The notes beneath the pieces were generated by a model that was not told where the DNA came from, searched no databases, and saw nothing but the letters and a program-made list of their open reading frames with translations. From an uncultured Dehalococcoidia bacterium (GTDB taxonomy: Bacteria > Chloroflexota > Dehalococcoidia > Lucifugimonadales > CAJWUJ01), in the NCBI GenBank assembly GCA_913047625.1, contig CAJWUJ010000004.1, positions 1 to 64,000 of the forward strand: a stretch of DNA of 64,000 bases, in the 5' to 3' direction. Both the position numbers and the translations under genes were made by a program. This document shows positions 17,895 to 21,904 of this stretch, piece after piece (within the stretch, counting starts at the first letter, position 1; every line of letters starts with the position of its first letter).

Positions 17895-19379
17895 CTAAGA
17901 ATATTTTTCCTGTGCAGAGAGATGGGCACTAGTACCAGCTATGCGACCAAACACTGCGCCCGCCATAAGACCGGCTCCACCAGGATAATTATGATAAAAC
18001 AGTCCACCAACTAATTCGCCAGCAGCATAAAGACCTGGAATAACACGATGAGAAGTACTAAGAACTTCAGCACTCTTATTAATGTGCAAACCTCCGAAGG
18101 TAAAGGTGATACCACAAGTAACGGCATAGGCAATAAACGGGGGAGAATCTATTCTCTGAGCCCAATTCGACTTATCTATAGGCAAACCCATCGTCTTTTT
18201 CCCGTCAAGCGTGGCAGGATTAAAGGAACCCTCTTTGACTGCTTGGTTATACTTATCCACTGTTGCAACAAGTGCTTTGGTATTAATACCCATTTCTTCA
18301 GCGAGATGCTCAATAGAAGGGGATCGTACCATCGTGACTTCCTTGATTCGATATTCATCCCTCAATATCGCTTCAACTTTACTATCAAATATCTGAAAAG
18401 CTATCCGCCCTGGTTGATTCATAATCTCCCTACCAAACTTTACATATGTAAAGTTCCTGTAGTCCAAGCCCTCATCAACAAACCTTTCCCCGTTTTTATT
18501 AACGATTAAGCCAAGTGGATATGAATGTTTTTGGTATAGATCAAGTATCTTCCTATCCCCAAAAGGAGGTGCGGCAACGTCCCAAGCAACGGCATGGCAT
18601 CCACTCCAGTTACCATAAGATTCCGCACCGATTTGTAGAGCCATCTGAATTCCGTCTCCTGTGTTGTATTGAGTACCACGTACCTTAGCAAGTTCCCAGC
18701 CTGGACCTAGATAGCGGGTCCTCATTTCCGCATTAGATTCAAAGCCTCCACAGGCTAATACGACAGATTTACAATACTCAATCCGACCACCATCTGGTCC
18801 TTGTAAGGATACGGCTTCAATATGCCCGTTTTCATCTAACAGGAGCTTTGTTGCAGCTGATTCATATACAACCTCACCGCCAAGGGATTCAAAAATCTCG
18901 AACTCCTTTTCTACTAAACCTTTCCCTCCGCCAGATGCTTCGAGAATTAACCCTCCCCAGAAATGGAATTTACCATTTACTTTAAAAGATTGTCGGCCGT
19001 ACATGGGAACCCAGCGGATGCCTTGTTCTTTCAGCCAAGTTACAGTAGCGAGTGACTCATTGATCAGGATGGAACTAAGAACAGGGTCTGTTAGGTCTTC
19101 TGTCAACCGACCGAGATCCTCATGATATTTGGATTTAGTATAGGTGCCGAATTCAACATCTTGTTCTTCTTGTGCTGTGAAATCAGCAATCAAGGGCCGA
19201 AGGTCTTCAATGCCTGAGTAAGCAAATCGAAAGCCTCCAGCAGTAAAATAGGAATTCCCGCCTCTCTGATGCCTAGGAGCCTTTTCGACTACTAAGACTG
19301 ATGAGCCTTTTTCCTTGGCTGCAATTGCAGCACAAAGCGCTGCATTCCCAGCACCTATAACTATGACATCGTATTTCAT
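17895..19379 (-). CDS. FAD-dependent oxidoreductase, fumarate reductase/TcuA (tricarballylate dehydrogenase)-like
   Basis: 'MKYDVIVIGAGNAALCAAIAAKEKGSSVLVVEKAP', 'GLYAAGELVGGLFYHNYPGGAGLMAGAVFGRIAG'. Listed start 19445 overlaps rnpB; Met at 19379 (or 19385) is better. Confidence 0.9.
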   Translation of the reverse strand: MKYDVIVIGAGNAALCAAIAAKEKGSSVLVVEKAPRHQRGGNSYFTAGGFRFAYSGIEDLRPLIADFTAQEEQDVEFGTYTKSKYHEDLGRLTEDLTDPVLSSILINESLATVTWLKEQGIRWVPMYGRQSFKVNGKFHFWGGLILEASGGGKGLVEKEFEIFESLGGEVVYESAATKLLLDENGHIEAVSLQGPDGGRIEYCKSVVLACGGFESNAEMRTRYLGPGWELAKVRGTQYNTGDGIQMALQIGAESYGNWSGCHAVAWDVAAPPFGDRKILDLYQKHSYPLGLIVNKNGERFVDEGLDYRNFTYVKFGREIMNQPGRIAFQIFDSKVEAILRDEYRIKEVTMVRSPSIEHLAEEMGINTKALVATVDKYNQAVKEGSFNPATLDGKKTMGLPIDKSNWAQRIDSPPFIAYAVTCGITFTFGGLHINKSAEVLSTSHRVIPGLYAAGELVGGLFYHNYPGGAGLMAGAVFGRIAGTSAHLSAQEKYS

Positions 19380-19403
19380 TTGCATGTCCTTAATGTTAAA
19401 TAA

Positions 19404-19802
19404 GTCAGCAAGAGTATATAAGCCGGATTCTGTACAGCCCTTCACAATCTAATGCTCAAATAAGCGATAGAACGCTAATAGCTGTGACGGTCATCTATCT
19501 CGACCCAATGTTACCATTGGGCTCTAGCAGCCTACCCGAGGGCCATAGCCGAGACATATTTACCCTCCTATTTGGCCTTGCTCCGAATGGGGTTTGCCCA
19601 CATACATGTCACCATGCATGCCGGAAGCTCTTACCTCCCGTTTTCACCGTTGCCAATTGGCTGTTTAGTTTCTGTGGCACTTTCCGTACTTGGCATGTTT
19701 TCACAAACCAAGCCCTGGATGTTATCCAGCATTCTTCTCGGTGGAGTCCGGACTTTCCTCTCAGAAAGCTAACCTTCTGAGCAACCGCCATACCTTGCTG
19801 AC
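19404..19802 (-). ncRNA. rnpB: RNase P RNA, bacterial type A-like
   Basis: Minus strand carries 'GAGAGGAAAGTCCGGACTCC', 'GCCACAGAAACT', 'ACGGTGAAAACGGGAGGTAAGAGC', 'GGCAAACCCCATTCGGAGCAAGGCC', 'GATAGATGACCGTCACAGC' and terminal 'ACAGAATCCGGCTTATA'; ends pair as P1 (GTCAGCAAG/CTTGCTGAC). Confidence 0.97.
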
Positions 19803-19840: not shown

Positions 19841-21199
19841 CTACGAAGTGCGTAAAACTACTTCAAAACTGCTCGCGTATACATCTAAGGAAAAGATTAA
19901 GCTTCCTAAGGTGGCTTGTTTGTCTTCAGGAGCAGCAGTCCGAAGGTTCTCTACGGCATTTGCATGATTAAAGGAACTTGGAGTACTCGCGAGGTTTTTG
20001 CGTTCTTGCAGCGCACTTTCAGCTTTCTGTAGCTCTAATTTATGCTGTTCGTATAACTGCCTAAGCAGAAAGATCGTTACCAGACCAGTTGCACTTCTTT
20101 GTATCTGCCTCTCAAATCGTTTTTTTATATTGGCTATTTGGTTATCAAAATGAGTTAAATCCTCAGGGGGGACAGGAGGTCGACTTTCGCTACGACTATG
20201 TCCAGCATCAGTGTTCAGCATAACACAAACTTTATCTAATACTTGCTCTTCCAGGTCAACAGCTTTCCAGGTATTATAGCTGCAAGTTCCCCGATTCGTA
20301 GCTGTTTGACATTGATAATAGCGGTATAATTTCGATGTTTTTGCTGCTTTAACTGTAGTCCATGATTGATTCCTGGTAACTCCCATTAAAGGGGAGCCAC
20401 AATATCCACATCGACCTATCTTGTTTAAAAGAAAAATATTCGTATATTTTTTTCGTCGATTCGGAGTTCTGGAAGTCATGAGGTCTTGGACATCCCGAAA
20501 AGTAGCGGGGTCAATGATTGCTTCGTGAGAATTAGGGAGCCTTAGTCCAAACCTAGTATATGTTCCGATATAAGTGGTGTTTTTCAATATATCCCTTATA
20601 GTCACCATGCTCCAGGGCTTACCTTTTCGGGTTTTGATATCTTGCTCATTAAGGGAATCAGCGATCTTTCTCAAACCTAACCCTTCAGTTCCGTACAGTT
20701 TGAAGATAGTCGTAACTACAATAGCTTCCTCACTTGTAATGGCAAGTTTTTTATTTTGCCCTATATGGTATCCATAGGGGGTCTTACCCATAGCAAATGC
20801 ACTTGCCGCTTTTTGATGCATACCCAGAAGCATTTTTTGTTGAAGTTCAGATCGAGTGGGTTCTAATCCGCTAGCCAAACCTTGAATAGGGTCAGGGAAA
20901 TCTTTGTCAATGCAACGAATCTCACTACCAAGATGGTCTACGTCAAGGATATTTTCCACTGCGACTGTAATATCGGCACCCAAATGGTTTGATGAAGGGA
21001 TTACGACCAGAAAGCCTAATCCAGATTCCTTTATAAAAGTAACAACTTCTTTGAATTTTTCTACTTCAGATGAAGCGCTGCTATGAAAAACCTTTACCAG
21101 GTTATGCTGTTTTTCCTCACAAAATTCACGTATTTGATCTTCTGATCTAGTTGAATCAGCTCCATGTGTATCATATAAATAGTAACCTAACGCTCTCAT
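19841..21199 (-). CDS. Serine recombinase-family homologue (Recombinase domain plus zinc ribbon) with apparently inactive resolvase domain
   Basis: 'KTPYGYHIG...EEAIVVTTIFKLYGTEGLGLRKIADSLNEQDIKTRKGKPWSMVTIRDILKNTTYIGTYTRFG' Recombinase domain; Cys ribbon 'CGYCGSPLMG...YQCQTATNRGTC'; C-terminal coiled region. Confidence 0.9.
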   Translation of the reverse strand: MRALGYYLYDTHGADSTRSEDQIREFCEEKQHNLVKVFHSSASSEVEKFKEVVTFIKESGLGFLVVIPSSNHLGADITVAVENILDVDHLGSEIRCIDKDFPDPIQGLASGLEPTRSELQQKMLLGMHQKAASAFAMGKTPYGYHIGQNKKLAITSEEAIVVTTIFKLYGTEGLGLRKIADSLNEQDIKTRKGKPWSMVTIRDILKNTTYIGTYTRFGLRLPNSHEAIIDPATFRDVQDLMTSRTPNRRKKYTNIFLLNKIGRCGYCGSPLMGVTRNQSWTTVKAAKTSKLYRYYQCQTATNRGTCSYNTWKAVDLEEQVLDKVCVMLNTDAGHSRSESRPPVPPEDLTHFDNQIANIKKRFERQIQRSATGLVTIFLLRQLYEQHKLELQKAESALQERKNLASTPSSFNHANAVENLRTAAPEDKQATLGSLIFSLDVYASSFEVVLRTS

Positions 21200-21202
21200 T
21201 GG

Positions 21203-21904
21203 CTAACCTACTACTATCATTCTGTCACAGCCACTACATTTTCTCCATTCCCTGGATCGCTTCATCTGCTGTAATTCACTGGAAGGAATCACGATTCTGC
21301 AAATGCCACACATGTCTCTAGAAAGTTGCGAAACTGCTACCCCACCTTTTTTTATCCGGAGTTGCGTATAGGAATCTAAAAGAGTTTTAGTGATATTCTT
21401 CACGACTTTATCTCGCTCTATTTGTTGTTCTGAGATTAGGATTTCAATATCATGCTTTGAAGCCATAAGGTCTTTTTGACGTTCCTGATTCTCATCTTTG
21501 GCTGTTTTCAGCTTTTCATCAACCGAAAGAAGCATCGAATCATAGGACTCTGTCTTTACCATCAAATCAAGGACGCTTTCTTCTTTCTCGGCGTAAAGGC
21601 TTTCTAAGTAAGTAATTTCGTCCTGAAGACCCTTTAGCTCCTTTTCATTCCTAAGGGTTCCAGCGTACATCCTTTTAGTTAAAGAGCTAATTTTATCTTT
21701 ATATTCAACGAGTTCAATCTGTAACTTGCTTTGACTTTGAGCAAGCTTACTTAATTCTTTTTCAACAGCAAGTCTCTTAGCAGATAACTGATCAATAGCA
21801 GTACTGTCAGAAAGTCCTTTCAGAACTCCTTCCATCAGGACTGCTTGTTTGTCAAGCAACAGATCTATCGCTTGAAGTTTTATGAGAGACGCATAATCAT
21901 TCAT
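21203..21904 (-). CDS. Coiled-coil, C4-type zinc-ribbon protein
   Basis: Long heptad-like helical region then 'CGICRIVIPSSELQQMKRSREWRKCSGCDRMIVV'. Confidence 0.88.
   Translation of the reverse strand: MNDYASLIKLQAIDLLLDKQAVLMEGVLKGLSDSTAIDQLSAKRLAVEKELSKLAQSQSKLQIELVEYKDKISSLTKRMYAGTLRNEKELKGLQDEITYLESLYAEKEESVLDLMVKTESYDSMLLSVDEKLKTAKDENQERQKDLMASKHDIEILISEQQIERDKVVKNITKTLLDSYTQLRIKKGGVAVSQLSRDMCGICRIVIPSSELQQMKRSREWRKCSGCDRMIVVG

What the first reader, a model, noticed from the sequence alone, without database searches (positions are those of the whole stretch)
19841..21199. Serine-recombinase homologue with all signature catalytic residues replaced, embedded in a housekeeping operon next to rnpB
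In active serine recombinases the N-terminus reads roughly Y-x-R-x-S-[ST], where Ser is the nucleophile, with a later (D/N)RLxR. Here the colinear segments read 'LGYYLYDTHGADSTRSEDQ' (R to L, S to D) and 'VVIPSSNHLGADIT' (RLxR to HLGA). The DNA-binding Recombinase domain, Cys zinc ribbon and C-terminal helical tail look intact. The gene begins about 3 bp after the stop of a coiled-coil zinc-ribbon gene and ends 38 bp before rnpB, and I saw no integrated element around it. This looks like a domesticated, non-cleaving DNA-binding protein, possibly a nucleoid or regulatory factor, rather than an active integrase. Whether it acts on the nearby rnpB promoter region is speculation.
Basis: partly seen in the sequence, partly recalled or inferred. 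Interest (0 to 1): 0.8.

Follow-up and report, generated by a model that had tools for sequence, protein, structure and literature searches.

The report
Dead serine recombinase kept as housekeeping gene
A gene descended from a phage-type DNA-cutting integrase lost its whole cutting centre long ago, but its DNA-binding half has been kept under selection in about half of sampled Dehalococcoidia genomes, so it is probably a resident DNA-binding protein whose job is still unknown.

Summary
ORF 19841-21199(-) (452 aa) has the layout of a large serine recombinase, but the catalytic Ser and Arg residues are gone, while the Recombinase domain and four-Cys zinc ribbon are intact. It is not a decaying pseudogene. 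Single strong orthologues occur in 60 of 98 relatives of the same order and about 196 of 393 genomes of the class (Dehalococcoidia, from record titles), but in none outside the class in a 400-genome sample of the phylum. All 107 examined are catalytically dead. They form one side of a supported branch and evolve under purifying selection as strong as the neighbouring gene cdsZ.

The link to rnpB is largely inherited. The older gene order is cdsZ-rnhA-rnpB. The recombinase gene entered between cdsZ and rnhA, and rnhA was later lost from the window's locus. The gene also persists where cdsZ is undetectable and where rnpB lies more than 4 kb away, so neither is an obligate partner. The rnpB promoter shows no shared operator.

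Best reading: an anciently domesticated, non-cleaving DNA-binding and possibly DNA-bridging protein. Its targets and role are unknown. I found no description of it in the open-access papers searched.

The parts
19841..21199 (-). Catalytically dead large-serine-recombinase homologue, 452 aa
   Evidence: Intact ORF; PF07508 4e-20 and PF13408 2e-11, no PF00239; Foldseek top hits are serine integrases
20888..21199 (-). N-terminal resolvase-fold domain (residues 1-104); Y6 kept, R8/S10/R45/R68/R71 equivalents are L8/D10/V46/H72/A75
   Evidence: Alignment with 13 active relatives; AF2 alternating strand/helix fold
20465..20794 (-). Recombinase (DNA-binding) domain, residues about 136-245, with invariant G143 R177 N184 W196 N207 Y210 G212
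   Evidence: Pfam PF07508; invariant columns in 63 orthologues; 16 of 22 positions of active enzymes kept
20225..20434 (-). Zinc ribbon, residues about 256-325, Cys264, Cys267, Cys297, Cys306
   Evidence: Pfam PF13408; Cys conserved at 93-99% across 107 members
19991..20167 (-). Two long helices, residues about 345-403, matching the coiled-coil arm of large serine recombinases
   Evidence: AF2 secondary structure H345-370 and H376-403; sequence poorly conserved
21203..21904 (-). cdsZ/CT398-type coiled-coil zinc-ribbon gene, upstream and probably co-transcribed (3 bp gap)
   Evidence: PF24481 2e-11, NF047363 2e-7; upstream in 60 of 65 order loci
19402..19800 (-). rnpB, RNase P RNA class A
   Evidence: Rfam RF00010, 257 bits
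19810..19839 (-). rnpB promoter-like site TTGACC-18-TACACT, starting 2 bp after the stop codon
   Evidence: Consensus scan, with about as many sites as expected by chance over the region; a -10 (TAxAAT, often TGxTAxAAT) recurs at about -16 to -9 before rnpB across 49 loci

Best explanation
This is a domesticated, non-cleaving descendant of a large serine recombinase (phage or mobile-element integrase). Its gene entered a housekeeping cluster, cdsZ-rnhA-rnpB, early in the history of Dehalococcoidia. The serine/arginine cleavage centre was lost (shown). The protein has since been kept mainly for its two DNA-binding domains, the Recombinase domain and the zinc ribbon (inferred from conservation). 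Most likely it works as a dimer, or a pair of dimers, that recognises long DNA sites and can bridge or loop them through the coiled-coil arm, acting as a transcription or nucleoid factor (inference). Action in trans on scattered sites is more likely than dedicated control of rnpB (inference from loci without rnpB or cdsZ).
For: Class-wide loss of catalytic residues: the Ser column is Ser in only 11 of 107 members, and none of those keeps both R68 and R71. Of 56 catalytic-domain positions near-invariant in active relatives, the majority of dead members keep 8; in the Recombinase domain they keep 16 of 22 and in the zinc ribbon 12 of 17, with the Cys ligands at 93-99%. dN/dS is 0.06-0.28 where it could be estimated among the 22 closest pairs, lowest over the DNA-binding domains, and comparable to cdsZ in the same genomes. 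The dead family is one side of a branch with SH-aLRT 99, compatible with a single inactivation. There is one strong copy per genome in 60 of 98 order relatives and about 196 of 393 class genomes. Some members have a shortened or strongly eroded N-terminal domain (L048, L057, L065, L108, L111, L115) while the DNA-binding part remains. The gene is retained in genomes with no detectable cdsZ and away from rnpB (L031, L042, L060-L064).
Against: No DNA binding, target site, oligomer or phenotype is shown. No shared operator was found before rnpB, and genome-wide site searches were not possible. Several lineages within the order lack the gene although cdsZ and rnpB are present (for example G020, G091, G043), so it is not essential. 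The N-terminal domain is also under constraint (N-terminal w 0.04-0.33), so a function other than DNA binding is possible. Conservation of the Recombinase domain and zinc ribbon could also reflect binding of nucleic acid other than duplex DNA.
Confidence: 0.72

Rival explanations
1. A dedicated local regulator that binds the cdsZ/rnpB region, derived from the old attachment site of the integrated element, and controls rnpB or its own operon.
For: Tight cdsZ-gene-rnpB order: rnpB within 1 kb on the same strand in 44 of 65 order loci, cdsZ upstream in 60 of 65, overall median gap to rnpB 51 bp. The gene's stop codon abuts the rnpB promoter.
Against: The gap holds only an extended -10 with no shared dyad, and genomes lacking the gene have the same 38-48 bp gap between cdsZ and rnpB. 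In outgroup loci RNase HI separates the gene from rnpB. The gene is retained where rnpB is distant or cdsZ is undetectable.
Confidence: 0.12
2. A helper subunit in an RNA-processing or R-loop complex with CdsZ, RNase HI and RNase P, binding RNA or RNA-DNA hybrids rather than duplex DNA.
For: The cluster cdsZ-(dead gene)-rnhA-rnpB groups nucleic-acid genes. A CdsZ homologue, Waddlia Wcw_1456 (CT398 homologue), is DNA-associated genome-wide and may contact RpoD (PMC6426960).
Against: rnpA is present in 38 of 40 relatives, so it is no RnpA substitute. cdsZ is undetectable in f42, f47, f93 and f17 genomes that keep the gene. Synteny of flgZ/cdsZ-type genes with rnhA and with rnpB is known elsewhere without any recombinase (PMC3372290).
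Confidence: 0.08
3. A still-active recombinase that uses a displaced nucleophile or a partner recombinase.
For: Tyr6 is kept in 93 of 107 members and Arg8 in about half; the fold and the coiled-coil arm are retained.
Against: No replacement Ser or Arg is conserved, and no member keeps both the R68 and R71 equivalents. Single-copy vertical pattern with no surrounding element.
Confidence: 0.03
4. A decaying remnant of a prophage integrase with no function.
For: All catalytic residues are lost, and some lineages have lost the gene.
Against: Purifying selection comparable to cdsZ, conservation across a class at 26-40% identity, intact frames throughout.
Confidence: 0.01

Closest known systems
Large serine recombinases (A118, SPbeta YokA, Bxb1 and phiC31 integrases)
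   Same: Same domain order (resolvase fold, Recombinase domain, zinc ribbon, helical arm); A118 and YokA are the best sequence matches and serine integrases the best fold matches in the PDB.
   Different: Cleavage residues absent, shorter C-terminal part, chromosomal single-copy vertical inheritance, no mobile element.
Poxvirus F16 (OPG061), a predicted catalytically inactive serine recombinase homologue
   Same: Inactivated serine recombinase exapted for another role; cited in PMC4304020 (reference to Senkevich, Koonin and Moss 2011). OPG061 models appear as weak fold matches.
   Different: Viral and eukaryotic-host context, no Recombinase or zinc-ribbon DNA-binding part (from memory), nucleolar localisation.
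CcrA/CcrB/CcrC cassette chromosome recombinases
   Same: Best NCBIfam similarity over the DNA-binding part (CcrB 4e-22).
   Different: 78.6 bits against a cut-off of 900; Ccr proteins are active enzymes of mobile cassettes.
CdsZ/CT398/FlgZ neighbourhood with rnhA and rnpB
   Same: The genomic home of this gene; flgZ homologues near rnhA or RNase P RNA are documented (PMC3372290), and in M. tuberculosis Rv2229c (protein of unknown function) is in the operon with the RNase HI gene Rv2228c (PMC7466739).
   Different: No recombinase homologue in the arrangements described there.

Membership tests
Active large serine recombinase | Catalytic Ser in Y-x-R-x-S | tested here: not met
   Asp10 in the window protein; Ser in 11 of 107 members, D/N/Q/G/T and others elsewhere
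Active large serine recombinase | Arg pair in (D/S)RxxR plus Arg45 | tested here: not met
   H72, A75, V46; R68 column is His in 52 of 66 order members; no member keeps both R68 and R71
Active large serine recombinase | Resolvase-fold N-terminal domain (PF00239) | tested here: met
   Met by fold and by weak PF00239 hits in 24 of 63 orthologues, not by sequence in the window protein itself
Active large serine recombinase | Recombinase domain and Cys zinc ribbon | tested here: met
   PF07508 and PF13408 in all 63 orthologues
Active large serine recombinase | Lies in a mobile element with att sites | tested here: not met
   Housekeeping neighbours, vertical single copy; empty arrangement cdsZ-rnhA-rnpB in relatives. 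att sites as such were not searched for
Domesticated DNA-binding protein | Conserved single-copy orthologues at a stable locus under purifying selection | tested here: met
Domesticated DNA-binding protein | Binds specific DNA and changes transcription or structure | not testable with these tools
   Needs DAP-seq, ChIP or EMSA

The most novel reading that the evidence does not exclude
A class-wide, chromosomally encoded DNA-bridging regulator or nucleoid protein of Dehalococcoidia that arose from one inactivated large serine recombinase and uses the integrase's long-site recognition and coiled-coil bridging without cleavage.
Probability: 0.35. Interest if true: 0.78.

Novelty: new variant of a known kind. 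Interest (0 to 1): 0.62.

Why it matters
Catalytically dead serine recombinases are rarely described; the one clear published parallel found here is a poxvirus protein. This family would be a long-lived, bacterial, vertically inherited example with the full DNA-binding half of a large serine recombinase kept under selection. It offers a natural test of what such DNA recognition and coiled-coil bridging are good for without recombination. It also warns that 'recombinase family protein' annotations in Dehalococcoidia are misleading for this gene.

Tried and rejected
Pseudogene: rejected by dN/dS and breadth. rnpB-specific operator: no shared dyad in 49 upstream regions, and empty-site genomes have the same gap length. 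Replacement of the RNase P protein: rnpA present in 38 of 40 relatives. Obligate CdsZ partner: cdsZ undetectable in f42, f47, f93 and f17 genomes that keep the gene. Close viral source: no relative found in viral contigs with the one peptide pattern used; phage integrases match at about 25-27% identity. Literature: nothing on a dead serine recombinase in Dehalococcoidia or next to rnpB in the open-access library; subscription journals were not covered.

Full report
The object. The ORF at 19841-21199 on the minus strand is 452 aa and intact. It has a Recombinase domain (PF07508, 4e-20) and a recombinase zinc ribbon (PF13408, 2e-11), but no Resolvase domain hit even at E 10. The best PDB sequence matches are the A118 and YokA integrases. 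An AlphaFold2 model from six window and GenBank sequences (mean pLDDT 75, pTM 0.43, most N-terminal blocks about 85-92) finds serine integrases end to end in Foldseek. The inter-domain arrangement is not reliable at that pTM.

Catalytic centre. Aligned with 13 active recombinases of the same class, the Y6-R8-S10 / R45 / R68-R71 positions read Y-L-D / V / H-A in the window protein. Among 107 non-redundant homologues the Ser column holds Ser in 11, scattered, and none of these has both R68 and R71. The R68 column has become His in 52 of 66 order members, inside a recurring 'HLG' motif. Of 56 catalytic-domain positions that are at least 90% conserved in active relatives, the majority of dead members keep 8. 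In the Recombinase domain they keep 16 of 22 and in the zinc ribbon 12 of 17.

Breadth and selection. One strong copy per genome occurs in 60 of 98 relatives of the order. In the class, about 196 of 393 genomes have a match at 1e-58 or better, counted by hand, with a clear gap to ordinary recombinases at 7e-47 and weaker. In a phylum sample of 400 genomes every match at 1e-60 lies in the same class. The class is Dehalococcoidia by the titles of GenBank loci L031 and L035. A maximum-likelihood tree puts all 104 dead rows on one side of a branch (SH-aLRT 99); several long branches make the inner order unsure. dN/dS (NG86) is 0.06-0.28 in the close pairs where it could be estimated, comparable to cdsZ in the same genome pairs. 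The window's own lineage had no close relative for dN/dS.

Locus history. The order-level arrangement is cdsZ - dead recombinase - rnpB. cdsZ is found upstream in 60 of 65 loci, usually within about 10 bp; rnpB lies within 1 kb on the same strand in 44 of 65; the overall median gap to rnpB is 51 bp (from Rfam). In outgroup families of the class the roughly 450-740 bp between the dead gene and rnpB hold an RNase HI gene wherever the ORF could be identified. In class members without the gene, cdsZ is followed either directly by rnpB (38-48 bp: G020, G144, G109, G091) or by rnhA and then rnpB (G245 verified; G110, G264 and G205 judged from their reading). So the gene entered between cdsZ and rnhA, and adjacency to rnpB is secondary. 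Synteny of cdsZ/flgZ homologues with rnhA or rnpB is documented elsewhere (PMC3372290; PMC7466739).

What the neighbours do and do not tell. The rnpB upstream region shares only a -10 element (TAxAAT, often TGxTAxAAT) across 49 loci. rnpA is present. The gene persists without detectable cdsZ in families f42, f47, f93 and f17 and more than 4 kb from rnpB in L031, L042 and L060-L064. Absence of cdsZ there rests on a profile search that may miss divergent copies. A stand-alone function in trans is therefore the simplest reading. A CdsZ homologue in Waddlia is DNA-associated genome-wide and may contact the sigma factor RpoD (PMC6426960), which fits a transcription or chromosome theme but is not evidence about this protein.

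Mechanism. Shown: the catalytic residues are absent, the DNA-binding modules are conserved, and selection maintains the protein. Inferred: it binds duplex DNA as a dimer, and the two C-terminal helices, equivalent to the coiled-coil arm used by large serine recombinases for synapsis (established knowledge), could bridge sites. Target and output are unknown.

Novelty. The fold and ancestry are known; a bacterial class-wide inactivated large serine recombinase was not found in the literature library. The nearest parallel is poxvirus F16, described as an inactivated serine recombinase (PMC4304020). I therefore file it as a new variant of a known kind.

Noticed in passing
window:19402-19445: The ORF of the FAD-dependent oxidoreductase-like gene called at 17895-19445(-) overlaps the 3' end of rnpB only because of an upstream GTG; an in-frame ATG further in is the likelier start.
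   Followed up: no
window:48149-48343: Two adjacent tRNA-Ser genes (anticodons cga and gga) on the plus strand, 16 bp apart.
   Followed up: no
L028:2881: In this relative (G028) the dead recombinase ORF runs directly into the start of rnpB (gap -3 bp), so the rnpB promoter must lie inside the coding sequence.
   Followed up: no
genomes G027, G031, G076, G075, G015, G070: No RNase P class A RNA match was found although several of these genomes are rated 92-97% complete; divergent rnpB or assembly gaps.
   Followed up: no
L061-L064 (family f17): In these small genomes the dead gene has moved to another neighbourhood without cdsZ or rnpB; T-box leaders lie nearby in L063 and L064.
   Followed up: partly
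genomes of families f42, f47, f93, f17: CdsZ/CT398-type protein undetectable by profile search while the dead recombinase is kept.
   Followed up: partly
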